A DNA stretch of 64,000 bases from the IMG/VR virus record IMGVR_UViG_3300030329_003230, positions 1 through 64,000 of that record; one strand, 5' to 3'. How positions within the stretch are numbered: the stretch's first letter is position 1; every line of letters starts with the position of its first letter. The position numbers and the translations under genes were made by a program. Source of the stretch: a virus. The notes under the pieces are model-generated. The model ran no database searches. It saw nothing but the letters and a program-made list of their open reading frames with translations, and was not told the origin of the DNA. Below, in pieces: positions 18,642-56,100 of this stretch.

Positions 18642-18726
18642 GTGGATGTAGCCGAGTGGTCAAAGGCGAGAGGCTTAAGACCTCTTACATAATGTTTCGT
18701 AGGTTCAAATCCTACCATCCACACCA
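18642..18726 (+). tRNA. tRNA-Leu(UAA) with encoded CCA
   Basis: Acceptor GTGGATG/CATCCAC, D arm GCC...GGC, anticodon stem AGAGG-CTTAAGA-CCTCT (anticodon TAA), long variable arm with an ACA/TGT stem, T arm GTAGG-TTCAAAT-CCTAC, discriminator A, then CCA in the DNA. Decodes TTA, abundant in this AT-rich genome. Confidence 0.95.
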
Positions 18727-20810: not shown

Positions 20811-21100
20811 TGAGTGATAAAACAAAAAATGAACTGAAGAAAGATTTGAAGAAATTAACAGAAAAAAATGAATTTCTCTTAAAAGAGAATGAAATGATAC
20901 ATCAATCTTTTAAAGATATGACCCAAACAAGTGACAATTATCGCACAGCAATTGTTCAATTACAGAACAAGTTACAAGAGGTAGCGAATATTGTCAGTCA
21001 TTACGAGAAAACCATCTTAGTGATGAGCGGGCGAATCCAAGAGAAAGACACTTTGATAAGTGAACAAAGAATGAAAATAGAAGGAGGAAAAATAGAATGA
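20810..21100 (+). CDS. Coiled-coil protein
   Basis: 96 aa, Lys/Glu-rich heptads through most of its length (LKKDLKKLTEKNEFLLKENE). Its stop overlaps the ATG of the ubiquitin-like gene (ATGA), so the two are translationally coupled. No catalytic residue seen. Confidence 0.65.
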   Translation: MSDKTKNELKKDLKKLTEKNEFLLKENEMIHQSFKDMTQTSDNYRTAIVQLQNKLQEVANIVSHYEKTILVMSGRIQEKDTLISEQRMKIEGGKIE

Positions 21101-21300
21101 AACTGAGAATTTTGAACGAAACAGGACACACTGAAATGTCAGTAGCAGTAGAGGAAATTATGGACCACATTAACGAACACGCAACACATTGGGTTTTCGT
21201 GGATGGTGAAATGATTAACCGAACAGACATCTCAGAAGTTAACTGGGATGACGTATCAGATGTAGACTTAGTTCCCGCTATTGTTGGCGGAAACTGCTAA
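21097..21300 (+). CDS. Ubiquitin-like beta-grasp protein (Prok_Ub/SAMP type)
   Basis: 67 aa. Strand MKLRILNETGHTEMSV, helix EEIMDHINEH, strand HWVFVDGEMI, then DVSDVDLVPAIVGG followed by NC. The C-terminal PAIVGG in a VDL-strand context is the signature of MoaD/ThiS/ubiquitin-like modifiers. The two residues after Gly64-Gly65 would have to be removed before activation, the job of a JAB peptidase. E1-like and JAB-like genes lie 4-5 kb downstream in the same direction. It could instead be a sulfur carrier. Confidence 0.7.
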   Translation: MKLRILNETGHTEMSVAVEEIMDHINEHATHWVFVDGEMINRTDISEVNWDDVSDVDLVPAIVGGNC

Positions 21301-21310
21301 ATCTAATACG

Positions 21311-21360
21311 TTAGTGGTTTGCCAGTAATAAGGGATTTATTGGTAATTTTATTCCCTTAT
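21311..21360 (+). promoter_or_regulatory. Pseudoknot leader element A
   Basis: S1 TTGCC (21319) with GGTAA (21342); S2 ATAAGGGA (21328) with TCCCTTAT (21353), interleaved as an H-type pseudoknot. Shares TTTGCC and AGTAATAAG with element B at 37.5 kb. It lies in the 196-bp leader of the gene at 21497. A CAACAT/ATGTTG hairpin follows at about 21380. Confidence 0.6.
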
Positions 21361-21496
21361 CCACACCCAATAGGTTTTCAACATTGAAAATAAATGTTGT
21401 AAATCTAAACCCTTTTTTCACTCTCTAAAAAAAGAGGGGTATCCTTCATATAGAGCAAAAAAGGTAGAGCAGTTTACCTGTTAGGAGTGATTTGAG

Positions 21497-21916
21497 ATGT
21501 ACAAGATGATAGAATTTATTGGAAAAAAATCAAGAAAACATGAGAGAATAGTTAGGTATTTGTCAGAAAATGGAGAACAATCTACTCATGATATAGTTAA
21601 ACTGTTTGAAACAGGAAAACTATGTGCTACTACTAATGAAATAGCCAATCTCCTCAAAAAGAGCGGACTATTCACAATAAGTGGACAGACTAACGTATCT
21701 AAATTTACTTCCCTTAGGAATTCATATTCAATATGTAAATGGGATTTAAATTATGAAGGACTAGTAAGAAAATATGAAGTTAAAGAGTTTGGTAACAGTA
21801 ACAAAGGTAAGTATATTTTCAATACTACCAATAAAGAATTATATCATCTTCCTACATTAAAAAGAGAAGGGCTATGGGAAAGCATAGAAAAAGAATTGGA
21901 AAAGGAAAAAAGATGA
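21497..21916 (+). CDS. Winged-helix-like protein
   Basis: 139 aa. ERIVRYLSENGEQSTHDIVKLF...TTNEIANLLKKSGLF has the helix spacing of a winged HTH domain. First gene after leader A, so a regulator subject to its own control is plausible. No closer family recognised. Confidence 0.65.
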   Translation: MYKMIEFIGKKSRKHERIVRYLSENGEQSTHDIVKLFETGKLCATTNEIANLLKKSGLFTISGQTNVSKFTSLRNSYSICKWDLNYEGLVRKYEVKEFGNSNKGKYIFNTTNKELYHLPTLKREGLWESIEKELEKEKR

Positions 21917-22221
21917 TATTTGATAATATACAACAATTAAGAGACTGTATGATAGAAGTATTACCCGAAATAATACCTCCAAGGCAATTAGATTCGGTAA
22001 TATCATACATTGATAAAATTAAACAATTGGATTTACAATTAGAGACTAAAGAAGTGCTATGTAATTCAGAAATAAGGAAAGTGTTGATAAAGAACAAAAT
22101 TGTCCCATCATATGAAATAAAAGATTGGTTACATCAAAGGCGAGAAGAATATCTCGAATTAATGGAATATGTCAAGAGGGATAATGAATGGAAAACCAAA
22201 CACAATATCGATACAGAATAA
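21913..22221 (+). CDS. Helical hypothetical protein
   Basis: 102 aa from ATG 21913 (ATGA overlap, preceded by AGGAAAAAAG); a longer frame from 21874 is open. Contains PEIIPPRQLDSVISYIDKI. Unknown. Confidence 0.6.
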   Translation: MIFDNIQQLRDCMIEVLPEIIPPRQLDSVISYIDKIKQLDLQLETKEVLCNSEIRKVLIKNKIVPSYEIKDWLHQRREEYLELMEYVKRDNEWKTKHNIDTE

Positions 22222-22382
22222 GTATCTGTAAAGCGAATGGAAGTGTTTGGATGGAGGAGTTTGATACTCAAAATCTCCTTATTCAGCAAATAGATGAATT
22301 ATTAGAAAAACACCCGCATCTTCTTATCTCTAAACAAAGAGTGAGTGATAAAAATGAGAGACAAGAATCCCGAATATGTTAA
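22188..22382 (+). CDS. Small hypothetical protein
   Basis: 64 aa, MENQTQYRYRISICKANGS, alpha/beta. Overlaps the genes on both sides by about 30 nt. Unknown. Confidence 0.5.
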   Translation: MENQTQYRYRISICKANGSVWMEEFDTQNLLIQQIDELLEKHPHLLISKQRVSDKNERQESRIC

Positions 22383-22506
22383 AGGGCGAAGAGGAAATAT
22401 AGCAACTAAATGCAGAATTTGTGGTGGGGCTTTAACCCATCCAGACGATATGAAACAGGAGATACATTCTCCCTGTCTCAGAAGATATAAGAGTAAATTG
22501 AGGTGA
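22354..22506 (+). CDS. 50-aa Cys-containing basic protein
   Basis: Arg/Lys-rich with CRICGGALTHPDDMKQEIHS and a later C: Cys-x2-Cys plus His and Cys, probably one zinc finger. The end is followed by GAGGTGAT and the next start. Confidence 0.6.
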   Translation: MRDKNPEYVKGRRGNIATKCRICGGALTHPDDMKQEIHSPCLRRYKSKLR

Positions 22507-22510
22507 TAAC

Positions 22511-23770
22511 GTGCCAGAATTAAAAATTAAAAGAGCCGATGATTCAGGGGAATATGATTCCACACTAGTTTTATTTGGTGGAGAAACGAGTTATAGAACA
22601 GAAACTATTTCTCCAACCATGTATAGAAAGGCTAACAATCCTATGATTGAGGCCATAAAAGTGTGGTTAGCGGGTAAACTAAAGATAACCAGAAAACACA
22701 TCTATGGTGAATCTTGGAGGAGAAATAGAAGACATAGAGGATTCTATACTCCCAACAACCAAATTGTTAGTAAAGAACCTGAAGAAAATAAACCAGAAGT
22801 AAACGAGTTTTCCCACACAATATCAATTGGAGATGAAGGCTACGTTGTTCTTTTTAACAAAGTAGGAACACGTTATTTCTTAAACGGAATAATGGGTAAC
22901 AAGTCAGTATTGATTGCTGCATTAGCAAGGACAATTTACAAGTCTTGTTTCTCTGATGATTCTCTTGAATTAGATAAGTTCCTAATTAAACATATTCAGC
23001 TCCCTGAAAATGTTCATTATGCTCTTGAGAATAGAGCACCTTACTATTTTTATTTGGAAGCAGAAGATGGGTTCCATTCTAAAAGGATTGAATGTCGATT
23101 AAAAGTCAACTTGATTAGCGACACTAAAGTAGCAGTCGAGATTTCAGATGGCATTTGGGGAGAATTAACTATTAGACAAATGAATGTCTATATGAATACT
23201 TATCTTAACAAAAAGAAGCAAGGCAATTGGAGTAACCTAAGCCCTGCTGCTTTATGGGAAAAGGTAATGAAAAGACTACCAACCGAATCTGAAGAACAAT
23301 TGATGGTAGCTTTCCTTCACCAGAATAGAACTTCAAAGGTAGTTAGAGAAAGAGCAAGAGATTTGATGATTCATATTCAATCTCGATATCCAGACAGAAT
23401 CAAGATTAATTGGGGAAGTCCTGACAAGTTACTAGATGTTTCAGAAAAGCCGACTATTATGTACATTAATGGTAAAGTTGCTGATTGGAAATTAACAGAC
23501 CGAGGATTAAAATCCCAAGGACAACAAAATGTTTCAACATACGTTTGGGTGGAGAAAGAAGGGATAGAAAAGGGAACTTGGAGTGGTCCTATTTGTGTGG
23601 ATAACCTCGATAATAAATCCCCAACAGGCGACCAGTTCGTAACAAGAGCGCTGGGATTACTGAATGATGACTTGTTAATTCAAAGAGTATCAACCATCAA
23701 AGGAAGATTAAATAGCGGCCATAAAGTGGGACAAACTGACCAAAGAATTTCGCTGTTCCAAAAGGAATAG
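22511..23770 (+). CDS. Hypothetical protein (419 aa)
   Basis: GTG start behind GAGGTGAT. The N-terminal 90 residues are basic (ESWRRNRRHRGFY), and an alpha/beta middle follows (GYVVLFNKVGTRYFLNGIMGNKSVLIAALART). No catalytic motif recognised. It precedes the TFB gene. Confidence 0.7.
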   Translation: MPELKIKRADDSGEYDSTLVLFGGETSYRTETISPTMYRKANNPMIEAIKVWLAGKLKITRKHIYGESWRRNRRHRGFYTPNNQIVSKEPEENKPEVNEFSHTISIGDEGYVVLFNKVGTRYFLNGIMGNKSVLIAALARTIYKSCFSDDSLELDKFLIKHIQLPENVHYALENRAPYYFYLEAEDGFHSKRIECRLKVNLISDTKVAVEISDGIWGELTIRQMNVYMNTYLNKKKQGNWSNLSPAALWEKVMKRLPTESEEQLMVAFLHQNRTSKVVRERARDLMIHIQSRYPDRIKINWGSPDKLLDVSEKPTIMYINGKVADWKLTDRGLKSQGQQNVSTYVWVEKEGIEKGTWSGPICVDNLDNKSPTGDQFVTRALGLLNDDLLIQRVSTIKGRLNSGHKVGQTDQRISLFQKE

Positions 23771-23784
23771 AGAAAAGAAACGGT

Positions 23785-23798
23785 CATCCTTCGGGGTG
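23785..23798 (+). promoter_or_regulatory. UUCG hairpin at the TFB ribosome binding site
   Basis: CATCC-TTCG-GGGTG. Its 3' strand is the G-rich sequence in front of the TFB start, so it could end the upstream message and also hide the TFB ribosome binding site. Confidence 0.5.
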
Positions 23799-23804
23799 GC
23801 AAAA

Positions 23805-24659
23805 ATGAAATGCGACGAATGTAAAGGCGATATTGTAGAGATAAATGGAGAATGGTCTTGTAATATCTGTGGGTTAATCACAGGTAGTATAATGGATTCC
23901 TCCCTTTTCAAAAACCAAGAATTAGTTAAACATCGAGATGGGAACTCTACTAGATTAGGGAGTCACATTGGTAAAGAAAAGATAAAGGGAGCAGCCAGAC
24001 TCAGGAGATTGGCAGTTATGCATAGTTTATCTAAAGAGCAGAGATTAATGAAAAAAGCTGAGTTTTACATGAATATGGTTCTCAGTGAATTTCAATTGTC
24101 AGATTGTGCTAAAAAGGACATAATGATTTATGATTCCACTTTAAGAAGAAAAGGTGTGTTTACTTCTAAAATGACATTAGAAGAAAGAGCAGGTGCTTTA
24201 GGGTATATAATTTTGAAAGAATATGGAAGAGAATATACTCTACAAGAAGTATCTCAAATATTAGAACTATCACCTAAAAGGTTGAGTAAATTAGCTAAAT
24301 TGTATGCAAGGCATTTGAATAAATCATACGTGTTTTCTAACATTAACGTGCCTTCATTGTTGGAGAAATTTTGTCTGAAATTAAATAAAGATAGAGCTTT
24401 CATTAATGATTGCGTAAGTCTGTATTATTACTTAGATAAGATAGAACCTAAACAGCCTAATTCAGCACATCTATCTGGCATTGTTTATTTTGTAGAGACA
24501 ACTAATACTAAACTAACTATGAGTCAGAGTGAAATAGCAAAGGAATTCAAAATTGGTTTGACTTCATTAAAAAATAATTACAAAAGAATATTGTCAATAT
24601 TGAAGATTGATAACGCATTTAATTTAACAGTGAGTGATATAATAGAGGGAATAAGATGA
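23805..24659 (+). CDS. tfb: Transcription initiation factor TFB-like
   Basis: 284 aa, close to archaeal TFB length. N-terminal zinc ribbon CDECKGDIVE...CNICGL (residues 3-24), a B-reader-like segment with RLGSHIGKEKIKGAARL, then two cyclin-like repeats: about 70-165 (ERAGALGYIILKEYG..LQEVSQILELSPKRLSKLAK) and 180-280 (VYFVETTNTKLTMSQSEIAKEF). TFB recruits archaeal RNA polymerase to TATA/BRE promoters. A viral copy would steer the host enzyme to viral promoters. The start is at ATG 23805; a GTG three codons upstream is open. Confidence 0.85.
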   Translation: MKCDECKGDIVEINGEWSCNICGLITGSIMDSSLFKNQELVKHRDGNSTRLGSHIGKEKIKGAARLRRLAVMHSLSKEQRLMKKAEFYMNMVLSEFQLSDCAKKDIMIYDSTLRRKGVFTSKMTLEERAGALGYIILKEYGREYTLQEVSQILELSPKRLSKLAKLYARHLNKSYVFSNINVPSLLEKFCLKLNKDRAFINDCVSLYYYLDKIEPKQPNSAHLSGIVYFVETTNTKLTMSQSEIAKEFKIGLTSLKNNYKRILSILKIDNAFNLTVSDIIEGIR

Positions 24660-24904
24660 GAGCAAAAACAGTGATACATGTAGAATATGAGATATTAAAA
24701 AATATATTACAATCGAAAGAAATAGGAATGGTAATTGAAAGAGTGAAAGCCAATATGGTTCCTCCTAATGACCCAGCCGCTGAGAAAAGATTCAATGCAG
24801 GAGTGACTTCTTCAGCCCAATTGATTCGCAATATAGTAGATAGAAGAACACACAGAATTCCTCAAAACCATCCCGACTTTAAGGTGAAGTCTAATGATGA
24901 CTGA
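24656..24904 (+). CDS. Small hypothetical protein
   Basis: 82 aa, ATGA overlap with TFB. Contains VPPNDPAAEKRFNAGVTSSAQLIRNIV. Unknown. Confidence 0.6.
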   Translation: MRAKTVIHVEYEILKNILQSKEIGMVIERVKANMVPPNDPAAEKRFNAGVTSSAQLIRNIVDRRTHRIPQNHPDFKVKSNDD

Positions 24905-25250
24905 TGAATTGAAAGAAGAAATAAATTCCTTGATAGAACAATTAGATGAAGAGAAACCCCCTTCATCAATTAAAGAAGCAGATAAGGCGATTAAAACTAA
25001 TCTGCTTGTTTATCTAAGAGGATATGTTGCTGATGATTTTTGGTATAACGGCTGGAAAGATGGGCCTAAGAATAAATTTGATTCTGCAAGAGTAAAACTC
25101 ATGGAAAGATTAGTGAGTGAAATAAAAGAAACACCATTTATACCTTTAATGGTGGAAGAAAGTGAATCTAATTCTGCATTTGAATTTGATGTAAAGGAAA
25201 TAAGAGAAGACGTATTAACGTTACAAGATTATTTGGAGATGAATGAATGA
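24894..25250 (+). CDS. Acidic helical hypothetical protein
   Basis: 118 aa, no Cys, so not an E2-type conjugating enzyme despite lying next to the E1-like gene. Helical with YLRGYVADDFWYNGWKDGP. Overlaps the E1-like start by ATGA. Unknown. Confidence 0.65.
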   Translation: MMTDELKEEINSLIEQLDEEKPPSSIKEADKAIKTNLLVYLRGYVADDFWYNGWKDGPKNKFDSARVKLMERLVSEIKETPFIPLMVEESESNSAFEFDVKEIREDVLTLQDYLEMNE

Positions 25251-25810
25251 AAAGAAAGATATTGATTATAGGAACTGGAGGTATAGGAAGTTTTCTTATT
25301 CCTCTTTTAGATAAGACTGAGTTATACAATATTACAGCCCATGACCCTGATATTATAGAAAAGAAGAATATCTCTTATCAGAATTTTAATACTGGTGAAA
25401 TAGATAAGAAGAAAGTCATGGTTATGAAAAACAGATATAGTTCAATAAAGAAGGCAGAACCATTTCTTGTTCTTACAGAAAAACAGATTCAGGGATATGA
25501 TTTAGTCGTTTGTTGTGCAGATAATCTTGATGTTCGTAGACTCCTTTATAGGTCATCAACTCGATGGCTGGATTTGAGAGCACAAGGAAGGAATGGGGCA
25601 TTGATTAGTTATAAGACCCCTAAAGATATGTTTGATGTTGTCCTTGCAGGACCAGATGGTAGTTTCTCTTGTCAAGGAACAGATTGGGCGGGAGATAATT
25701 CTGGATTACATTTTACTCATGTAGCAATTGCAGGTATGGCAGCGGAATGGATTCAAAGGTGGTTTATCAGCGATAGTGATGTTTGTGATTATAAGGTTGT
25801 GAATATTTGA
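25247..25810 (+). CDS. E1-like (ThiF/UbaA-type) adenylyltransferase, minimal form
   Basis: 187 aa. Rossmann motif IGTGGIGS (residues 9-15), AHDPDIIEKKNISYQNF (D33/D35, N41, Q45; the usual Arg is Tyr44), lysines 54-56, CCADNLDVRR (D92, R97) and a candidate thioester Cys142 in FSCQGTDW. ThiF/UbaA/E1 enzymes adenylate the C-terminal Gly of ubiquitin-like proteins. This one is shorter than UbaA (about 270 aa) and has no rhodanese domain. It is coupled to the CxxC gene and the JAB gene downstream. Confidence 0.85.
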   Translation: MKRKILIIGTGGIGSFLIPLLDKTELYNITAHDPDIIEKKNISYQNFNTGEIDKKKVMVMKNRYSSIKKAEPFLVLTEKQIQGYDLVVCCADNLDVRRLLYRSSTRWLDLRAQGRNGALISYKTPKDMFDVVLAGPDGSFSCQGTDWAGDNSGLHFTHVAIAGMAAEWIQRWFISDSDVCDYKVVNI

Positions 25811-26037
25811 AAGAGAAAAAGGAATTTCGACGAGAAGTTGGCGACGTTGTAGATGTCTTAGAAACAGATAATGGAACGTATTTTGATTGTGAAATAGTAT
25901 CTGTTACTTGCCCTGCCTGTGGAGAATCCTTTACTGGAATTATTAGAGAAGCAGGTGGTTTTATTGCTGGGCATCAAACATATCACGAATTCACAAATGC
26001 TCAAGACGTTATGATAAATGCTATGGGTGGTGCTTGA
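25807..26037 (+). CDS. CxxC/HxxxxH zinc protein between E1 and JAB
   Basis: 76 aa, TTG start overlapping the E1-like stop. N-terminal SH3-like strand pattern (VGDVVDVLETDNGTYFDCEI), then CPACGESF...GHQTYHE, a C2H2-type finger, ending MINAMGGA. The terminal Gly-Gly-Ala is noted, but no beta-grasp is evident. It could present substrates or the modifier; function unknown. Confidence 0.65.
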   Translation: MKEKKEFRREVGDVVDVLETDNGTYFDCEIVSVTCPACGESFTGIIREAGGFIAGHQTYHEFTNAQDVMINAMGGA

Positions 26038-26541
26038 ATGGAAGCTTGGATGAAAGATATACAGTCTAGTTTTAACGATGGAAATGGACTTAAGAGTATA
26101 TTCCATAATGAAAGAAATACATTTCTCCATGAAATCTGGAATCAAAGTATGAATGGATTTGATATCCCAAGGGAAATCCAAGTAGTTATAGATTCTAATA
26201 ATGAATTATTTATGAGTGTAGGAAGTCCTTCTTTTGTATCATTTAATGGACAAGATGAATCCCTTTATGGTAAGAATAATGAAAAGAAGATGAAACTACC
26301 AATCAAGTGTTGGATACATACTCACCCTTTTGGTAAAGCATATTTCAGCGGTACGGACATTTCAACAATCAATACTTGGAAACCACATATGATGTCAGCC
26401 ATAGTTTTAGGGGATAATGAACACCAAGTTTGGCAGAAGGTGAAACCGGATATTGCAAAACATGTTAGATATATTACTGAGACGATTATAGAATTAGGAA
26501 CTAAAAATAAGATAGATAAAATGGTAGAGGAATTGATATGA
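26038..26541 (+). CDS. JAB/MPN (JAMM) metallopeptidase
   Basis: 167 aa. CWIHTHPFGKAYFSGTDIST gives H94-x-H96-P...S104-x-x-D107, the zinc site of JAMM isopeptidases; the upstream catalytic Glu is probably E56. In archaea such enzymes cleave ubiquitin-like proteins from targets and trim precursors. It lies directly after the E1-like and zinc-finger genes and overlaps the GroES-like gene by ATGA. Confidence 0.88.
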   Translation: MEAWMKDIQSSFNDGNGLKSIFHNERNTFLHEIWNQSMNGFDIPREIQVVIDSNNELFMSVGSPSFVSFNGQDESLYGKNNEKKMKLPIKCWIHTHPFGKAYFSGTDISTINTWKPHMMSAIVLGDNEHQVWQKVKPDIAKHVRYITETIIELGTKNKIDKMVEELI

Positions 26542-26765
26542 AATTAGAAGCATATGGTGAAACGATAGTTTGTAGAGAAGCAAAGACGAAAACAGGTCAT
26601 TTCGTAATGACTGAGAATAATAAAGCAGAAGTCATTTCAGTTGGTGATAAAGTTGAGAATTTGAATGTAGGAGAATTCATCTTCTATGAACCAAATAAGA
26701 AAGAAATTATTGGTGAATTTTTTGTTATTCATTTTCAAAGTGTGTTATGTAAGGTGATGGAATGA
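26538..26765 (+). CDS. groES: GroES-like co-chaperonin
   Basis: 75 aa against about 95 in cellular GroES. KAEVISVGDKVENLNVGEFIFYE aligns with the conserved G-V-G-x(n)-VGD-V-F block, and the end (FFVIHFQSVLCKVME) with the last strands. The mobile-loop region (KTKTGHFVM) is short. It directly precedes the GroEL gene, as in cellular groESL operons. Phage versions such as T4 gp31 retune the GroEL cage; the same role is inferred. Confidence 0.75.
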   Translation: MKLEAYGETIVCREAKTKTGHFVMTENNKAEVISVGDKVENLNVGEFIFYEPNKKEIIGEFFVIHFQSVLCKVME

Positions 26766-26836
26766 GTGAAGAAGATTATGAAGTTAGTAAACAAAGACAA
26801 GAAGACAAAGCAGCGAGTTATAATAAGGGGGAATAA
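26762..26836 (+). CDS. 24-aa charged micropeptide
   Basis: MSEEDYEVSKQRQEDKAASY at the start. ATGA overlap with groES and 2 nt before groEL, so a coupling peptide is plausible. Confidence 0.4.
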   Translation: MSEEDYEVSKQRQEDKAASYNKGE

Positions 26837-26838
26837 GA

Positions 26839-28413
26839 GTGATAATAATAGGAAATGAAGCAAGAGAAAAAATGTTACAAGGAATAAATCTTACCGCCAA
26901 TGCGGTTAAGCCTACCCTTGGGCCTATGGCAAGAACAGTTGTTTTGAAAGAACGCTCTAAACCAATTATTGTTAATGATGGAGTAACTGTAGCAAAGGCA
27001 ATTCATCATGAAGATGAATTCGTAGATATGGGAGCTAAATTATTGATTGAAGTTGCAACTCAAGCCCAAAACTTAGCGGGTGATGGTACAACTACAGCCT
27101 GTGTTCTTGCCCAAGCCTTCTGTCAAGAAGGAATGAAATTAATAGAAGAAGGTAGTAATCCTGTAAAGATTGCAGAATCTTTGAAGGAAATAGTACATGA
27201 AATATCTGATTCTCTTTTAACGAAATCTCATCTTATTGAGAACTCTGATGAAATAAAACACGTAGCAACAATTGCTGCTAATAATGATAATTATATCGGA
27301 GGACTTATCGCTGAAGCAATAGAAACAGTTGGTAAAGATGGAGTAATTACTGTTAATGAATCTAAAGATATGAACACTACAATTGAGGTAGTTCAAGGAT
27401 TAGAAATAGATAGAGGTTATAGAACCCATCACTTAGCAACAGATAAAGAAAAGAATCAAACTGTTATGGAGAACCCTTTAATTCTGGTATCTAATTTTAA
27501 CATTATACGATTTCAAGAGATAATTCCAATCCTTGAGAAAGTTTCTGCAACTAAGCGCCCACTGTTACTTATTTCAAGAGGACTTGAGCAACACGCTATC
27601 AGTAATTTGATTGTCAACGTTATGGGTGGAGTAGTACAATGCTGTGCAATTGAATCGCCAGATTATGGTTTTGTATCTGATACACTTCTAGAGGATATCT
27701 CTATTGTTGTTGGGGCTAAATTCCTTGATTATCAGACCAATATCAAAATGGAAGAAGTACAAATCGAAGACTTAGGGGAAGCAGAAAAAGTGGTAGTAGG
27801 TGAACTAAGAACTACTATCATTAATGGTTCTGGAGATGAAGAGAAAGTAACAGAAAGAGCAACTATGATTACTAATCACATCAAAGACGCTGATAATGAA
27901 TTTATGGCTGATAAAATGAGAACAAGGGTAGCTAAACTGTTAGGCGGAGTAGCAGTCCTAAATGTAGGTGCAGCCTCTGAAGTAGAGATGAGGGATAAGA
28001 TGGAAAGAATAGATGATGCCCTTAATGCTACTAGAGCAGCAATAGAAATGGGAGTTATTTCTGGAGGAGGAACAGCTCTTGCGGAACTTTCTATGGCAAT
28101 GTCAGATAAGACTGAAGAAGTAGAAAAGGCAGTATTACTGGAGTGTCTATTAACTCCCTACGAACAAATATTGACTAATGCTGGTATTGATTACACTGAA
28201 AAGAAATATCAGAAAAAGAAAGTAAAATTACCACACATTAATGCTAAAAATGGAGAACTTGGAGATATGTATTCACTGGGAATTATAGACCCAGTTAAGG
28301 TTACTATTTCTTCTCTTAATAGTGCTGCTTCAGTAGCGGCTCTAGTATTAACATCAGAAGTATTAGTTGGAGAGGAAGAAAATGAGACTATGCAATCACA
28401 GGGCATGTTTTAA
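26839..28413 (+). CDS. groEL: Group I chaperonin GroEL
   Basis: 524 aa, GTG start behind GGGGG. ATP site: LTANAVKPTLGPMARTVVL and AGDGTTTACVLAQAF (catalytic Asp within GDGTTT). Apical-domain features are group I: ENPLILVSNFNII, KRPLLLISRGLEQ, VNVMGGVVQCCAIESPDYG. Also GGVAVLNVGAASEVEM and GVISGGGTAL. The C-terminal GGM tail is missing (ends MQSQGMF). It folds proteins inside a ring closed by GroES. Group I in an archaeal virus is unusual because most archaea use thermosomes. Confidence 0.93.
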   Translation: MIIIGNEAREKMLQGINLTANAVKPTLGPMARTVVLKERSKPIIVNDGVTVAKAIHHEDEFVDMGAKLLIEVATQAQNLAGDGTTTACVLAQAFCQEGMKLIEEGSNPVKIAESLKEIVHEISDSLLTKSHLIENSDEIKHVATIAANNDNYIGGLIAEAIETVGKDGVITVNESKDMNTTIEVVQGLEIDRGYRTHHLATDKEKNQTVMENPLILVSNFNIIRFQEIIPILEKVSATKRPLLLISRGLEQHAISNLIVNVMGGVVQCCAIESPDYGFVSDTLLEDISIVVGAKFLDYQTNIKMEEVQIEDLGEAEKVVVGELRTTIINGSGDEEKVTERATMITNHIKDADNEFMADKMRTRVAKLLGGVAVLNVGAASEVEMRDKMERIDDALNATRAAIEMGVISGGGTALAELSMAMSDKTEEVEKAVLLECLLTPYEQILTNAGIDYTEKKYQKKKVKLPHINAKNGELGDMYSLGIIDPVKVTISSLNSAASVAALVLTSEVLVGEEENETMQSQGMF

Positions 28414-40564: not shown

Positions 40565-40680
40565 GAAGAAAAACATTCGCACGTTGGTCATTGAAAAATC
40601 TACGTCAATTCTATCTTTCTAAATTGAAAGTAAAAGTTGTCACTGATGAATATGAATATGAGGAATGGGAATATCAATGA
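40561..40680 (+). CDS. 39-aa basic/acidic micropeptide
   Basis: MRRKTFARWSLKNLRQFYLS, then an acidic Glu/Tyr-rich end. ATGA overlaps on both sides, linking it to PolB translation. Unknown. Confidence 0.5.
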   Translation: MRRKTFARWSLKNLRQFYLSKLKVKVVTDEYEYEEWEYQ

Positions 40681-42332
40681 TTATATCTTGGATAGATAAA
40701 GACAAATCCATCAAAATAAGATGGAGAGATGAAGATAATAATCGTAAAGAGAAGAGTATAAACGATTTTGAACCATACTTTTTTATCCGTTCTATTGATA
40801 AAAGGCCAGAAACTTACAAGACTAAACATTACATTGGTCAAGGTAAATCAGTAAAACAGACGGGTTTTTTCAAATATAAAACTGGAAAGTATTACAATTT
40901 GAATAAAGAATCATTAACTAAAGTGTTCTACTCTCATCCTAAAGATGCAAAGAGTGCAAGAAATAACTTTTCTGCTACTTGGGAAGGAGATGTTCCTATT
41001 CTCCGTAGATATTGTGTTGACGAATTAAAGGCGGTTCCTGAATATGAATTGCGTAAATGGTATTGGGATATGGAATGGCTACCGGATGAACATGAACACG
41101 GTGGAGCAATTACTGCCATTAGTGTATATGATAACTATACTAATAAAATCAAATTATATTGGTGGAGCCATTGGCACGATAAGTCAAACACAATTATGAG
41201 AAGATTTAATTCAGAAAAAACAATGCTTGAGTCCTTCGTAAAAGATATGCAAAAGCAAGACCCTGATATGTTAATTGCTTGGTGGGGATTACAGTCTGAC
41301 GTTCCTAAATTAATTCAAAGATTATTTGATAATGGTATTGACCCAAGAGGACTTTCTCCCTATAAAGAAGTGAAGGGTGTAGGTTTTAACCATGTTAGTA
41401 AGTTAGATTACAGCGGAATTGAACAACCCATAAAAGGTAGATTATGTCTTAACTTAGATTTAGCATTTGAAAGACAATGGATGGATGCTCAAAGGGGAAC
41501 TCTACCTTCAACATCATTAGAATACTGTGCAAGTGTTTCTGTAGGTGAAGGTAAAAAGAAAGAGTCTAAATTTAAAGATAGAAATGAATTCTTTATGAAA
41601 GCGTGGGAAGAAGATACAACTAATTATCTTGAATACTGTATGCAAGATTCAGAATTACTTTATCGAATAGATGAGGAAATGGGATTAAGTGAAGGAGTAT
41701 TAGCAATTCAGAAACTAGTTAAAACACCCTTTGAAGATTGTTTCTTTGTTAGTCACATGGGAAGTACATATTTCATGAGAAACGCATGGTGGAAAGCCCC
41801 AACTGGGAAACATGCTGAAAAGAAAGAATATGATGGAGCATTAATCTATAATCCTCTTGACGAGGGAACTAATGGGTTACATACTAATGTAGCCGCTTTT
41901 GATTTCGCTTCTCTTTACCCATCGTGTATTCTTGCAAGGAATATATCTTGGGAAACTAAGAGTGAAACAGAAACAGAATTTGCTGTTAACATAAGAACAC
42001 CTAGAGACTTTTCAGATGTCACCCAAGAAGATTGGAAATACTATAAGACGGATGAGTTAGGTCTTTTACCAAATGCTATAGCTACTTTAAAGCCATTAAG
42101 GAAAGAATATAAAATTAAAATGTTAGAGGCTCTAAAATCAGATAATAAGAAAGACTACATTAAATGGAATTCAATGCAAATGGCAACAAAGCGACTATTA
42201 GCTTCTTTTTATGGAGTAGTTGCTTTACAGGGTTTTGGATGGTATGACGTGGATTTGGCTGCAAGTATAACAGCAAGTGCGAGAGAAGCAATTAGAGAAG
42301 CCGCATTTAAAGTGAGGGAGTTATCAGTATGA
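40677..42332 (+). CDS. polB-N: DNA polymerase B, large fragment (exonuclease, motifs A and B)
   Basis: 551 aa from ATG 40677 (ATGA overlap). 3'-5' exonuclease motifs: WDMEWL (D131/E133), WGLQSDVP (D208), YLEYCMQDSELL (Y320/D324). Polymerase motif A DFASLYPS (409-416) and motif B KRLLASFYG (505-513). It stops at residue 551, a few residues before the place where motif C should begin; motif C is in the product of 42719-43645. The same type of split is known for PolB of Methanothermobacter thermautotrophicus. The two parts must pair to be active. Confidence 0.93.
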   Translation: MIISWIDKDKSIKIRWRDEDNNRKEKSINDFEPYFFIRSIDKRPETYKTKHYIGQGKSVKQTGFFKYKTGKYYNLNKESLTKVFYSHPKDAKSARNNFSATWEGDVPILRRYCVDELKAVPEYELRKWYWDMEWLPDEHEHGGAITAISVYDNYTNKIKLYWWSHWHDKSNTIMRRFNSEKTMLESFVKDMQKQDPDMLIAWWGLQSDVPKLIQRLFDNGIDPRGLSPYKEVKGVGFNHVSKLDYSGIEQPIKGRLCLNLDLAFERQWMDAQRGTLPSTSLEYCASVSVGEGKKKESKFKDRNEFFMKAWEEDTTNYLEYCMQDSELLYRIDEEMGLSEGVLAIQKLVKTPFEDCFFVSHMGSTYFMRNAWWKAPTGKHAEKKEYDGALIYNPLDEGTNGLHTNVAAFDFASLYPSCILARNISWETKSETETEFAVNIRTPRDFSDVTQEDWKYYKTDELGLLPNAIATLKPLRKEYKIKMLEALKSDNKKDYIKWNSMQMATKRLLASFYGVVALQGFGWYDVDLAASITASAREAIREAAFKVRELSV

Positions 42333-42454
42333 AAAGAGGCGAAAGAAAAGACGGTAGCGTTGAAAAACACTGCGGAATTCGTATAGCGTCTAAGTGGAAT
42401 TACTGCCCGATGTGTGGTAAGAAAAAAGAAAAAGAGGTGATTAAATGGGTATAA
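42329..42454 (+). CDS. 41-aa zinc micropeptide inside the PolB split
   Basis: MKRGERKDGSVEKHCGIRIA, then WNYCPMCGKKKEK: one CxxC plus His-Cys. ATGA overlap with PolB-N. Confidence 0.6.
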   Translation: MKRGERKDGSVEKHCGIRIASKWNYCPMCGKKKEKEVIKWV

Positions 42455-42485
42455 AATATAAAATAATTACAAAGGTGATAGCATA

Positions 42486-42575
42486 ATGAAATTTCATATT
42501 GTTAGTTTGTTAATTATAATAATTAGTGCTATATCTATTCTTTGGGCTTGGTGGAAAGGGAGAATGGGGGATTAA
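42486..42575 (+). CDS. 29-aa membrane peptide inside the PolB split
   Basis: MKFHIVSLLIIIISAISILW, then basic residues: one membrane helix. Stop abuts the next ATG. Confidence 0.5.
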   Translation: MKFHIVSLLIIIISAISILWAWWKGRMGD

Positions 42576-42719
42576 ATGTTAGTTAAATGTCAAGAGTGTT
42601 CAACTCAATTTAGTATTAATATGTGGTCAACTATGAAACATCTATGTGGTAAGTGTTACCTTGAATATAAAAAGGAAATAAGAGAAGGCAAAAGGAATAG
42701 ATTAGGGAAGATGATATAA
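42576..42719 (+). CDS. 47-aa zinc micropeptide inside the PolB split
   Basis: MLVKCQECSTQFSINMWSTM, then HLCGKCYLEY and a basic helix: CxxC...CxxC ribbon. One-base overlap with the PolB-C start. Confidence 0.65.
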   Translation: MLVKCQECSTQFSINMWSTMKHLCGKCYLEYKKEIREGKRNRLGKMI

Positions 42720-43645
42720 TGGACGTAGTTTATGCACATACAGATTCCCTTTATGTCCCTATACCATCAATAGAAGTTGCTCAAGATGTTCAAAAAATAT
42801 TGAATAAACACATACAAGAAGTAGTGTTTCCTAATATTATGAATTTAGAATCTCATCCTATGGATTTAGAATTCGAAAAATACTATTCTGTATTAGGAGT
42901 AGGAGCAACAAGAAATAGAAATGCTGGTTACATTAATTGGAAAGATGGAGTATATCTTGCTGAACCTGAGTTCTTCGCTACAGGGTTCTCCGTTAAGAGA
43001 ATAGCTGAATCCAAATTAGCGAAAGAGGTACAGAAGAAAACCTTGGAGATGTGGATTAATCAAAAAACAGAACAAGAGATTGTTACCTTTGTTAAGAAAA
43101 AATATAATGATGTTCTTAAAGGTAGAATAGATAAATTAAACTTAGTTAAAAGAAGTAGAGTTAAAGAAAATAGAATGACTCTAAAATGCAGGTGTAGAAA
43201 GAAATACAATGTAGATTATGTTAGAAAATTGTTGAGTGTATTACCTGAATCCTTATGTGAAAAGGATAATTGTAATAGTAAATTAATCTCTTGTACCACT
43301 GTAGAAGATAAAAGACCCTCTTTCGGTGGAGGGTTTGCTGGTATGTTATATTATAATGAGCACATTAATCCTCAACAAAAATTAGATGATTCGTTTTACC
43401 ACATTAAGTGTAAATTTGGTATTAACCAAAAACAGACTTTTACTAATTGGAATGGTAAAGAGAATAAAGCTGGATATATAGCGGTTAGAAATTTAGAAGA
43501 ATTAGAACCATTTGAGCCAGATTGGCCATTCTTAGCAGAAGCAGAGGTTCTTAAAAAAGTGAAACCTATATTCGAAGCGATGGAATGGGATATATCTCAA
43601 ATAAAAATAGATGAGAGTCAAACAAGTTTAGGAGATTGGTTTTAA
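42719..43645 (+). CDS. polB-C: DNA polymerase B, small fragment (motif C, thumb) with PIP box
   Basis: 308 aa. Starts MDVVYAHTDSLYVPIPS: motif C at the very N-terminus, but the first Asp of the usual DTDS is His7, leaving Asp9. Then a thumb-like region with FFATGFSVKRIAESKLAKEV. Cys clusters lie at about 155-205 (CRCRKK, CEKDNC). The last eight residues QTSLGDWF are a textbook PCNA-interacting peptide. Works with the 40677-42332 product as one polymerase. Confidence 0.88.
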   Translation: MDVVYAHTDSLYVPIPSIEVAQDVQKILNKHIQEVVFPNIMNLESHPMDLEFEKYYSVLGVGATRNRNAGYINWKDGVYLAEPEFFATGFSVKRIAESKLAKEVQKKTLEMWINQKTEQEIVTFVKKKYNDVLKGRIDKLNLVKRSRVKENRMTLKCRCRKKYNVDYVRKLLSVLPESLCEKDNCNSKLISCTTVEDKRPSFGGGFAGMLYYNEHINPQQKLDDSFYHIKCKFGINQKQTFTNWNGKENKAGYIAVRNLEELEPFEPDWPFLAEAEVLKKVKPIFEAMEWDISQIKIDESQTSLGDWF

Positions 43646-52828: not shown

Positions 52829-53191
52829 TTATTTCACCTGCACCACAATTGTAAATTCTAAAATATCAGTTGCCGTTATTGGCCCCACACCATCAAAATC
52901 AATTCTGTTTAACATATTACCACTACTATCAAAAATTCCTACTTCTGTTATTGTATATCCAGTTAACGCCGAAGCACTTCCTAAGAAACTCGCCTTGAAT
53001 TCCACTCCTGTATCATTTGCTAATGTTGATGAAATATTACTTGTTACCGTTGGTACTCCATTTGTTGTTCTTGGTGAATCTAATTCATTTGCGCTTGGAT
53101 TAGTACTATCTGTTCCTGTTCCTACATCCATACTGGCAAAATTAGTTTTAATTAACGTTGCTATCTGTTTCTTTCCTTCTTCTGTTATCAT
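52829..53191 (-). CDS. Tail-fibre-associated protein
   Basis: 120 aa. ITEEGKKQIATLIKTNF start and LTGYTITEVGIFDSSGNMLNR, a pattern common in phage tail-collar or fibre-attachment proteins. ATGA overlap with the giant gene and one base from the fibre gene. Confidence 0.7.
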   Translation of the reverse strand: MITEEGKKQIATLIKTNFASMDVGTGTDSTNPSANELDSPRTTNGVPTVTSNISSTLANDTGVEFKASFLGSASALTGYTITEVGIFDSSGNMLNRIDFDGVGPITATDILEFTIVVQVK

Positions 53192-56100
53192 TCAAACGCC
53201 TTCCCTTTAGTTAAATCTAAATCCAACATTAATGTCTTATTGGATAGTGTTGCTGTTCCTCCACTCAAAGTAAATCCTAATGTGGTACTGAATCCTAATA
53301 ATGCCCCCGAAGAGAAACCTAAATTTGTACTTGCGTCTGCTGGACAATACAATAAGTCTCCTTTAGTTAAAGTGACACTGAGAGGAGTAACAAGAGTAAT
53401 CTGAGTAGAACTTACTGATTCTATAACCCCTAAGTTAGTACCAGCGTTTGTGTAGAGGTTCGCTCCAGCAAGGAAAGTGCTACTAATATCAATAGTTGTT
53501 GAAATTTTATCACCACTAGATACAGTAGCAGCAACGCCGGTATAATTCATATCAGCACTAGTAGTTATTTTATGAACTTGTAATGTTACTTCTCCTATCT
53601 CTAATTCATCAAATAAATCGATATCTTGGTTAAGAGTTTCTGCTATATCTTCTTTGAAAGTTCTATCTAATCGTTTAATTTCAGTAATATTTTCAGCCAA
53701 CAATTGACCCAATCCCTTTGAATATTTACTCAAAGTTAATTTGACAACTCCATCTATAGAATAGTCAATTCCAGTTATCATATAATTCGAACGAGGAATA
53801 TTTTCAGATGGATAATGAACAACTACACTATCTGCAATTTTAACTAATTCAGTACCTCTTCGGTCAGTTTCTATTTTTAATTCTATATTTTCAGAAGAAT
53901 GTAATCTCAATAATTTTTGAGCCAATTGTTCTGCTTGAACTTTATCAGAAATTGTTCTATCTATTCTTTCTAATGTCCTTTTACCTTTTAATTTGATACT
54001 TTCTAAATCTCTTTTTCTGACTTTCAAATCTTTACCATATACCACTACGTCATTGTATAACTCAAAGGTGTTTTTATTTTTGGAAGCCAACATAATATTT
54101 TGAGTATCTTTATTCATTTCATCTATTTCGATAGATGTATTACGTTCAAAATCTTTAGAAGAAGATACTTCTATAGTGTTATTATCAACATATAATTCTA
54201 AGTCTTTGTTACCCAATATAGAACTACAGGCTGAAAATAAGTTAGATTCTCCACCAAGGAATTCAGGAGCCATAAAATAACTTTTAGGGGTTTCTGTCAC
54301 TGAAGTTATATCAGACCTTTTAGTATAATCTATTTCTTCTTTCTTTAAAATATTATTAACTATATCTTCTATCTCTGGAGCAACTGTTACTCCTACTCCT
54401 ATTGATGCGCTTTTTATATCACTCAGAGTAATTCTATCTTTAGTTGTAATTTCAAATATTTCCCCAATAGACAATATCCCTGCCGCCTCTTGCATATTAG
54501 TGAAAGATAATTCTGTACTGTTAGTGGACGCTTTAACTAACATAGTATCTTCCACTCTTATTTCACCATCTGTTTTTAACACATTATACTGAGTATTATT
54601 AGTAAATGGTTTACCAGAACCAAATAAGTTTCCTTTATCTCTACAAACAACATAATCGGAATTATCTGTATCTACATCTAAAGTAACATACATTGATAAT
54701 AACCCTTCATTGAATGGACTATCAATAGAATTATTTGTATTATTAGAATTAAACGAATTATTTATTTGTCCATACATCTCATTAGAGTATGGTTTTTTAC
54801 TCGTTTTTCTACTCATTACATATGTTTCAATATTATTAGGAGTAAAATTATATGTGCAAATTTCAGCGGGTTTCATTATTCTAAAGTGAGTATTTTTAGG
54901 AATATTAACATCATCAGTTAGACTAGAATCATATGCGCCATCAATATAAATTATATGTCGAATAATGTTATCTCTACCTTGAGTACCAGAACCAGTGGGT
55001 TCTTCAGCCTGACTTTTAACCTGAGTTTCGTGAGATACAACATAATATATTTTATCTGGAGTTATTCCTTCTACATTCCTAAAGAAATTACTACTAACAT
55101 CAGTTCCTATGTTCTGTGATATTGTTTCTTTAGTAGAAATTTTAGCAACTGTGGTATCATTCGCATTATTAGAAAAAGCAACATCTACAGTCAAAGCAGT
55201 ATCACTTGTTATACCTGTAATAATTCTAGTTTCTCCACTAACAGTTATTGAATCCCCTACAGATAATTCTGTTAAAAATTGTGTTCCTACTCCAGTTACT
55301 GAAGTAGAAGCAGCAGGGTCTATACTTCCAGTTAATGAATCTGAAGTAGTTCCGCTTAAATTTTTATCAAATAATGCTTCACTAGACTTACTTTCTCCAC
55401 TGTAAGAACCTGCTTCTGATACTAAATACATTCCAGTTAAATCTACAAAATTTAAGAAACCGTTACCTGCGGCTTGCGGTGGTTCACTAGTGTCAAAGGT
55501 ATCAATTTCTATTCTAACTAATTTCTTACCATCTGGAGAATTTTTCCATTCTACATCGGTAATATTTCCAGTAGAATAATTCTTAGAAATGTAATCATAT
55601 AAGAAATTAAATTTTATTTTATTTATGGCTGTGTAAGATTTTTGAGTAATAGTAGAATCATTAGCAGTAGTTGCGGAATAAGAATCATTGTATTTCCCTA
55701 ATGTTAAGGGAGTAGTTAACGTAGAAAATTCAGTGGAAAAGAATCCCATATCTAACATAGAAATATTACTCATTCTAAGTGGATAATATGGGAATTTATT
55801 ACTTGCGAATGTATTAAAATCAGTACCTTCTCTAAATCTATTACCTGATTTTGGATTATAATAATAAAAACTGTAACAAGGCATTACACTACCACTTAAC
55901 ATATTAGGGGTAGGATTAACAGCGGGCAAGTCATTATCAGTTACACTTGTATCTAAAGATAATACAAATACTGGACAGGCAACATATGTTAATGAACTAC
56001 CAGAGTAACCAGTACCTCCATCAGTGGCAAAATTACTAACGCCACTATAAATAGCATTATTAATTGGGTCTAATCTAGTAATGGCTCCACCGGATGCAGT

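What the first reader, a model, noticed from the sequence alone, without database searches (positions are those of the whole stretch)
21097..26541. Virus-encoded ubiquitin-like tagging system: Ubl, E1-like and JAMM peptidase
A 67-aa beta-grasp protein ending PAIVGG plus two extra residues (21097-21300), a minimal ThiF/UbaA-type E1 (25247-25810) with a candidate thioester Cys142, and a JAMM peptidase with H94, H96 and D107 (26038-26541) lie in the same direction within 5.5 kb. The last two are translationally coupled through a zinc-finger gene. The modifier needs its last two residues removed to expose Gly-Gly, which the peptidase could do. No E2 or E3 is visible, as in archaeal SAMP/UbaA sampylation. 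The virus may tag host or viral proteins for the proteasome, for assembly, or for thiolation chemistry. A TFB gene and a GroES/GroEL pair surround it.
Basis: partly seen in the sequence, partly recalled or inferred. Interest (0 to 1): 0.9.

Follow-up and report, generated by a model that had tools for sequence, protein, structure and literature searches.

The report
Virus-encoded minimal ubiquitin-like modifier system
A tailed virus of marine archaea, and every one of its relatives that could be checked, carries a small ubiquitin-like protein together with the enzymes to activate it and to trim or remove it, so the virus probably tags proteins in infected cells (or uses the tag as a sulfur carrier).

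Summary
The window belongs to an 87.4-kb magrovirus-like genome (tailed virus of marine Poseidoniales archaea). The 67-aa protein has 109 distinct relatives; all keep Gly-Gly near the end, followed by a variable cap (2 residues in 64, 1 in 31, none in 12). AlphaFold gives the beta-grasp topology with a floppy tail, and the 50 best PDB matches are ubiquitin-family or MoaD folds. The E1-like gene keeps its adenylation motifs and Cys142, and all 157 distinct JAMM homologues keep the JAMM motif. In 72 distinct loci with full flanks, Ubl and JAMM are always present (72/72), while GroEL, the zinc gene and others come and go. The twelve uncapped Ubls still sit beside an intact JAMM, so the peptidase does more than expose Gly-Gly. 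Best reading: a self-contained, E2-less Ubl activation, processing and removal cassette, most likely for protein conjugation; a sulfur-carrier role (as in QbsE/QbsD or capped PtmS2/PtmS3) is not excluded. A prevalent ThiF/MoeB gene in archaeal viruses was already published; I found no report of the three-gene system.

The parts
21097..21300 (+). Ubiquitin-like modifier, 67 aa; beta-grasp, ends ...VPAIVGG with a 2-residue cap NC
22511..23770 (+). 419-aa protein of unknown family, present in 72/72 full loci; invariant Cys362 in GPICxDN; possible fourth component (unproven)
23796..24659 (+). TFB-like protein (zinc ribbon C-x2-C...C-x2-C; only sub-threshold Pfam matches), first gene of the overlapping run that leads to E1
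   Evidence: PMC10768690 lists TFB in the related reference virus
25247..25810 (+). Minimal E1-like (ThiF/MoeB/UBA5 superfamily) adenylating enzyme, 187 aa; G9-x-GGIG, D33/D35, N41, Q45, K56, D92-N93, R97, R111, R115, C142 invariant
25807..26037 (+). 76-aa zinc-finger-like protein (C-x2-C ... H-x3-H conserved), present in a subset of relatives
26038..26541 (+). JAMM/MPN+ metallopeptidase, 167 aa; E46, H94-T-H96-P, S104, D107 invariant
26538..28413 (+). GroES-like (26538-26765) and GroEL (26839-28413); JAMM overlaps GroES by 4 bases; neighbours, not part of the core set

Best explanation
A virus-encoded, self-contained ubiquitin-like modifier cassette. The Ubl is made with a 0-2 residue cap; the JAMM enzyme removes the cap to expose Gly-Gly; the minimal E1 binds ATP and adenylates the C-terminal glycine, possibly passing it to Cys142; without a dedicated E2, as in archaeal sampylation, the activated Ubl is joined to lysines of viral or host proteins; the JAMM also takes it off again. 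Supported here: the beta-grasp fold (predicted), GG conservation, adenylation motifs, JAMM motif, co-occurrence. Inferred: adenylation, thioester, conjugation, targets. A plausible consequence, by analogy with SAMP-dependent turnover of the transcription factor TBP2 in Haloferax, is redirecting host proteins to the proteasome or switching their activity during infection.
For: Ubl: AF2 order strand-strand-helix-strand-strand-short helix-strand with a disordered tail; the 50 best of 350,542 PDB chains are all ubiquitin, NEDD8, SUMO, other Ubl domains or MoaD; GG kept in 109/109. E1: ThiF E=8e-15; model pLDDT 89; nearest structures UBA5, ThiF, Cap2, MoeB; profile matches UBA5, Uba1, Uba3, Cap2, Uba4. 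JAMM: motif intact in 157/157; profile nearest AMSH and an archaeal Rpn11-like enzyme, both deconjugating. Co-occurrence: Ubl and JAMM in 72/72 distinct full-flank loci, versus TFB 70, ligase 69, GroEL 47. Ubl and E1 distances co-vary beyond TFB (partial 0.28 versus 0.04). Twelve uncapped Ubls keep an intact JAMM, pointing to a deconjugating role. No rhodanese, cysteine-desulfurase or PP-loop thiolase gene in the 87.4-kb record. Precedents: sampylation by UbaA and removal by HvJAMM1 (PMC4443979); TBP2 (PMC4895103).
Against: No conjugate has been seen. Foldseek E-values for the Ubl are weak (best 8e-3) and TM-scores 0.4-0.6. The usual N-x-x-R-Q arginine of E1 is Tyr here, and the N-terminal Arg-finger helix is missing. 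C142 aligns with a UBA5 CxxC cysteine, not the canonical catalytic one. No E2 or E3 was found. Capped Ubls plus JAMM are also typical of sulfur carriers. The window Ubl has only one lysine (K2), so chains are unlikely. Host genes could supply sulfur. The co-occurrence is within one virus order and partly reflects shared descent.
Confidence: 0.55

Rival explanations
1. Dedicated sulfur-carrier system: JAMM trims the capped Ubl, E1 adenylates it, host sulfur converts the C-terminus to a thiocarboxylate, and the sulfur goes to a small molecule, tRNA or protein needed by the virus (works like QbsE/QbsD/QbsC or CysO/Mec+).
For: 1-2-residue caps after GG are the hallmark of JAMM-dependent sulfur carriers (PMC6006322: PtmS2 cap MV, PtmS3 cap C, QbsD). 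E1 resembles ThiF and MoeB. Some Ubl members match Pfam ThiS weakly (5 of 54, best 8e-4).
Against: No rhodanese, desulfurase or PP-loop thiolase in the record; no conserved biosynthetic neighbour; JAMM kept where no cap exists, although a CysO-type hydrolase would also explain that; JAMM profile nearest to deconjugating AMSH/Rpn11.
Confidence: 0.27
2. Dual function, as for Urm1 and SAMPs: both sulfur transfer and protein conjugation by the same Ubl.
For: Archaeal and yeast relatives do both (PMC4443979; abstracts of PMC7911844 and PMC8561144).
Against: No sulfur acceptor identified in the virus.
Confidence: 0.1
3. Tail-assembly role, as for lambda TAPI (Ubl) and TAPK (JAB).
For: Phage tail clusters pair a Ubl with a JAB domain (PMC1779556); an E. 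coli phage tail-assembly protein is a very weak tblastn hit (E=5).
Against: Genes sit in the + strand replication/transcription block, not in the minus-strand block that holds the terminase; JAMM stands alone without NlpC/P60; an E1 is present; no Ubl member matched a tail protein I family in Pfam.
Confidence: 0.04
4. The 67-aa protein is a PinA-like (T4 Lon inhibitor) protein and the GG is incidental.
For: 22 of 54 members match Pfam Inhibitor_I24 weakly, best 1e-4.
Against: All below the curated cut-off (27 bits), not matched by the window protein, covers only about 47 residues and leaves the invariant GG unexplained.
Confidence: 0.03

Closest known systems
Archaeal SAMP / UbaA / HvJAMM1 (sampylation)
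   Same: GG-ending beta-grasp modifier, one E1-like enzyme, JAMM deconjugase, no E2 needed
   Different: Virus-borne and syntenic; Ubl capped by 0-2 residues; E1 only 187 aa without zinc CxxC pairs or the N-terminal helix; sequence far below the UbaA family cut-off (23 of 450 bits)
QbsE / QbsD / QbsC and PtmS1-PtmS3 (capped sulfur carriers with JAMM)
   Same: One- or two-residue cap after GG with a JAMM peptidase and a ThiF-type activator
   Different: No biosynthetic cluster; JAMM kept even with uncapped Ubl; in a virus
PRTRC cassette of plasmids and integrative elements (E1 ThiF, JAB protein A, Ub-like protein C)
   Same: Mobile-element-borne Ubl, E1 and JAB; E1 matches PRTRC_ThiF at 4e-8
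   Different: 33 bits against a cut-off of 145; no match of the JAMM or Ubl to any NCBIfam model
Crassvirales (Steigviridae) JAB + ThiF gene pair
   Same: Adjacent virus-borne JAB (HSHNNMATFFSGTD) and E1 genes; hhalign 98% for E1
   Different: E1 383 aa with N-terminal extension; JAB 411 aa; no GG-ending Ubl found nearby
Borg extrachromosomal elements (deSAMPylases; Lilac Borg SAMP)
   Same: Archaeal mobile elements with SAMP-like and JAMM genes
   Different: JAMM multicopy and proposed to counter the host; the E1 reported there is chromosomal (PMC12660748)
CBASS Cap2/Cap3, Bil
   Same: Prokaryotic E1 and JAB around a conjugated C-terminus
   Different: Those are host defence with E2 domains; here the virus carries it and no E2 is seen (one search gives only E1-domain matches)

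Membership tests
Ubiquitin-like (beta-grasp) modifier with C-terminal GG | Beta-grasp fold | tested here: met
   AF2 pLDDT 76.7, canonical element order; top PDB matches ubiquitin, NEDD8, MoaD; E-values modest
Ubiquitin-like (beta-grasp) modifier with C-terminal GG | Terminal or cappable Gly-Gly | tested here: met
   109/109 distinct relatives
E1 / ThiF / MoeB adenylating superfamily | GxGGxG, Asp for ATP, Lys, D-N...R motifs | tested here: met
   Invariant in 56- and 95-sequence alignments
E1 / ThiF / MoeB adenylating superfamily | ATP-contacting Arg of N-x-x-R-Q and N-terminal Arg finger | tested here: not met
   N41-I-S-Y44-Q45; protein begins at strand 1
E1 / ThiF / MoeB adenylating superfamily | Catalytic Cys in the crossover loop | tested here: inconclusive
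   C142 invariant in a low-pLDDT loop, but aligned with a UBA5 CxxC cysteine
JAMM/MPN+ peptidase | E, H-x-H-P-x6-S-x2-D | tested here: met
   157/157 motif; E46 invariant; 40/53 members match Prok-JAB
SAMP/UbaA sampylation system | UbaA-family E1 | tested here: not met
   23 bits vs cut-off 450 for SAMPActivE1UbaA
SAMP/UbaA sampylation system | Covalent lysine conjugates | not testable with these tools
   needs biochemistry
PRTRC system | PRTRC ThiF / A / C models above cut-off | tested here: not met
   E1 33 of 145 bits; others no match
Capped sulfur-carrier system (QbsE/QbsD type) | Cap after GG with a JAMM peptidase | tested here: met
   97 of 109 capped, mostly by 1-2 residues
Capped sulfur-carrier system (QbsE/QbsD type) | Linked sulfur donor or acceptor enzymes | tested here: not met
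   (host supply not excluded)
Phage TAPI/TAPK | Ubl with JAB-NlpC/P60 in the tail module | tested here: not met
Order Magrovirales | PolB, RFC-S, PCNA, ligase, TFB, GroES/EL, opposed replication and virion blocks, about 90 kb | tested here: met
   against PMC10768690; no phylogeny made, reference records not held

The most novel reading that the evidence does not exclude
The first complete ubiquitin-like conjugation system that is core equipment of a virus order: all magroviruses with this locus carry their own E2-less Ubl, E1 and JAMM, plus a dedicated fourth protein (the 419-aa product with invariant Cys362, present in 72/72 loci and co-varying most with the Ubl), which hands the Ubl to, or is, the main target, so that the virus rewrites host protein turnover with a modifier the host does not own.
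Probability: 0.25. Interest if true: 0.88.

Novelty: new variant of a known kind. Interest (0 to 1): 0.7.

Why it matters
Viruses are known to hijack or reverse host ubiquitin-like modification, and bacteria use it against phages, but a prokaryotic virus with its own modifier, activator and peptidase, kept through an abundant ocean virus order, would be a new strategy. The proteins are small (67, 187 and 167 aa) and all enzymatic steps are testable in vitro at once. It also bears on how E2-less conjugation works and on how sulfur carriers became protein tags.

Tried and rejected
Family searches of the window Ubl alone (Pfam, PHROGs, NCBIfam, PADLOC) found nothing meaningful; relatives and a fold were needed. 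PinA resemblance: sub-threshold, rejected as explanation. Crass 428-aa and 267-aa neighbours as homologues of the 419-aa protein and the Ubl: rejected. Cellular E1 relatives: only three loci, in marine MAG contigs named Maricaulis and Altibacter, with the magrovirus E1, so probably mis-binned virus; they say nothing on host. Reference magroviruses and the key magrovirus papers (Philosof 2017, Prabhu 2025) are not held.
Full report
Where it is. The window is part of an 87.4-kb virus record. It carries a large terminase subunit on the minus strand and, on the plus strand, ATP-dependent ligase, clamp loader, sliding clamp, a family B polymerase split in two ORFs, GroEL and a TFB-like gene, with strand-biased skew that switches at about 12 and 50 kb. 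That is the published layout of Aoguangviridae / Magrovirales, tailed viruses of marine Poseidoniales (PMC10768690). I made no phylogeny, and the reference record is not in the collections, so 'magrovirus-like' rests on gene content. The host is taken from the literature, not tested here.

The three genes. From the TFB-like gene the reading frames overlap or abut in series: TFB, 82 aa, 118 aa, E1, zinc protein, JAMM, GroES, so E1 and JAMM are probably translated together. The Ubl lies 3.9 kb upstream.

Relatives. Scans of IMG/VR with each protein returned 80, 61 and 15 loci; two more scans with divergent E1s added about 100 loci. With profile searches of all ORFs this gave 109 distinct Ubls, 151 magrovirus E1s and 157 JAMMs (the raw E1 count of 153 includes two crass proteins).

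The small protein. In 109/109 distinct sequences Gly-Gly lies at or near the end, followed by 2 (64), 1 (31), 0 (12), 4 (1) or 7 (1) residues of variable sequence. Inside, N7, G10, H11, H28, T30, W32, L58, G64 and G65 are among the invariant positions. Among close relatives synonymous changes far outweigh replacements. AlphaFold2 with 54 sequences gives strands 2-7, 10-15, helix 18-27, strands 31-35, 38-40, short helix 42-45, strand 55-60 and a disordered tail (mean pLDDT 76.7): the beta-grasp order. Of 350,542 PDB chains the 50 best are ubiquitin, NEDD8, SUMO, other Ubl domains or MoaD. The Foldseek E-values are modest (best 8e-3), so the fold claim rests on the unanimity of the list and the topology. 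Sequence families alone do not see it; a few members touch ThiS.

The E1. Pfam ThiF E=8e-15; model pLDDT 89, with UBA5, ThiF, Cap2 and MoeB as nearest structures. Invariant are G9-x-GGIG, D33, D35, N41, Q45, K56, D92-N93, R97, R111, R115 and C142. Oddities: it starts at the first strand, so the N-terminal Arg-finger helix of MoeB-type enzymes is missing; the arginine of N-x-x-R-Q is tyrosine; no zinc CxxC pairs. (The roles of those E1 residues are family knowledge, not tested here.) C142 sits in a low-confidence loop, as an active cysteine would, but the profile alignment puts it on a CxxC cysteine of UBA5. Adenylation is therefore likely, the thioester only possible.

The JAMM. Motif H-T-H-P-x6-S-x2-D in 157/157 sequences, with Glu46 invariant. 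As a profile its nearest solved relatives are AMSH and an archaeal Rpn11-like enzyme, both deconjugating. The archaeal Rpn11 cleaves its ubiquitin precursor precisely after Gly-Gly (PMC6043591). No other JAMM motif occurs in the record.

Do the genes belong together? In the two searches, 42/42 and 62/62 E1 loci with flanks had Ubl and JAMM; 40/40 JAMM loci and 11/11 Ubl loci had the other two. On 72 distinct E1 loci with at least 9 kb on either side: Ubl 72, JAMM 72, the 419-aa protein 72, TFB 70, ligase 69, the 423-aa protein 62, GroEL 47, GroES 46, zinc protein 32. All are magrovirus-type loci found through E1, so part of this is common descent; the weight lies in the trio persisting where GroEL, GroES or TFB are gone. 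Distance matrices over 117 loci give partial rank correlations Ubl-E1 0.28, Ubl-419 0.35, Ubl-JAMM 0.18, Ubl-TFB 0.04; pairs are not independent and I attach no significance level.

Mechanism. Capped Ubl, JAMM trimming, adenylation: well supported by anatomy. The next step is open. For conjugation: twelve Ubls need no trimming yet their genomes keep an intact JAMM, so the JAMM has another substrate, most simply Ubl conjugates; JAMM is nearest to deconjugases; no sulfur-relay gene, PP-loop enzyme or biosynthetic partner is seen. For sulfur transfer: one- or two-residue caps are exactly what JAMM-dependent sulfur carriers have (PtmS2 MV, PtmS3 C, QbsD; PMC6006322), the host could supply sulfur, and a CysO-type JAMM would also keep acting on an uncapped carrier. 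I give 0.55 to conjugation, 0.27 to sulfur transfer, 0.1 to both. Targets are unknown. By analogy, Haloferax TBP2 is sampylated and degraded by proteasomes (PMC4895103), which makes host transcription factors an attractive guess beside a viral TFB.

Missing parts. No E2 family in the record (both families also score nothing above cut-off in the control genomes, so these tests are weak) and no HPN-type E2 motif. The 419-aa protein is always there and has an invariant Cys in G-P-I-C-x-D-N, but a direct profile comparison with an E2 fails and no family or structure matches. The zinc protein, in 44% of loci, could be an adaptor; Iyer et al. proposed this for zinc-finger proteins in bacterial Ubl operons (PMC1779556).

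Known or new? The RaFAH study listed a MoeB/ThiF gene as one of the most prevalent auxiliary genes of archaeal viruses and pointed to ubiquitination (PMC8276007). Searches of the held literature for magroviruses with ubiquitin, ThiF or JAB terms found no description of the Ubl or the JAMM, but three key magrovirus papers (Philosof 2017, Zhou 2023, Prabhu 2025) could not be read. Borg elements carry JAMM deSAMPylases and one SAMP (PMC12660748). Steigviridae crassphages carry an adjacent JAB and E1, so virus-borne E1/JAB may be wider than this order. I file it as a new variant of a known kind.

Noticed in passing
L158:6268-8657 and L157:6222-8654 (crassphages): Steigviridae crassphages have an adjacent JAB protein (411 aa, HSHNNMATFFSGTD) and ThiF/E1 (383 aa), preceded by a 428-aa and followed by a 267-aa unknown protein: a second virus-borne E1/JAB pair whose joint role I did not find described.
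   Followed up: partly
window 22511-23770: A 419-aa protein of no known family is present in every full locus with E1 (72/72) and has invariant W216, G321, Q339, C362, D374, Q375, R379, N385, D386; deserves a structure prediction.
   Followed up: partly
window 25807-26037 and relatives: Zinc protein (C-x2-C, H-x3-H) comes and goes between or near E1 and JAMM; in the window it also ends in GGA, but that is not conserved.
   Followed up: partly
window 40665-43645: Family B DNA polymerase is split over two ORFs about 390 bases apart (40665-42332, 42719-43645), as in the Aoguangviridae reference virus.
   Followed up: no
L159-L161 (MAGs named Maricaulis and Altibacter): Bacterial MAGs in the species genome collection contain contigs with the magrovirus E1; likely mis-binned virus sequence.
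   Followed up: no
L062 / L129 (IMGVR_UViG_3300021958_000021, 184,733 bases): This contig is about twice the usual magrovirus length; possibly a head-to-tail assembly duplicate.
   Followed up: no
window 53188-62166: A 2,992-aa minus-strand ORF without PHROGs match in the presumed virion block.
   Followed up: no
window 18642-18726: A virus-borne tRNA-Leu (anticodon TAA) lies 2.4 kb upstream of the Ubl gene.
   Followed up: no
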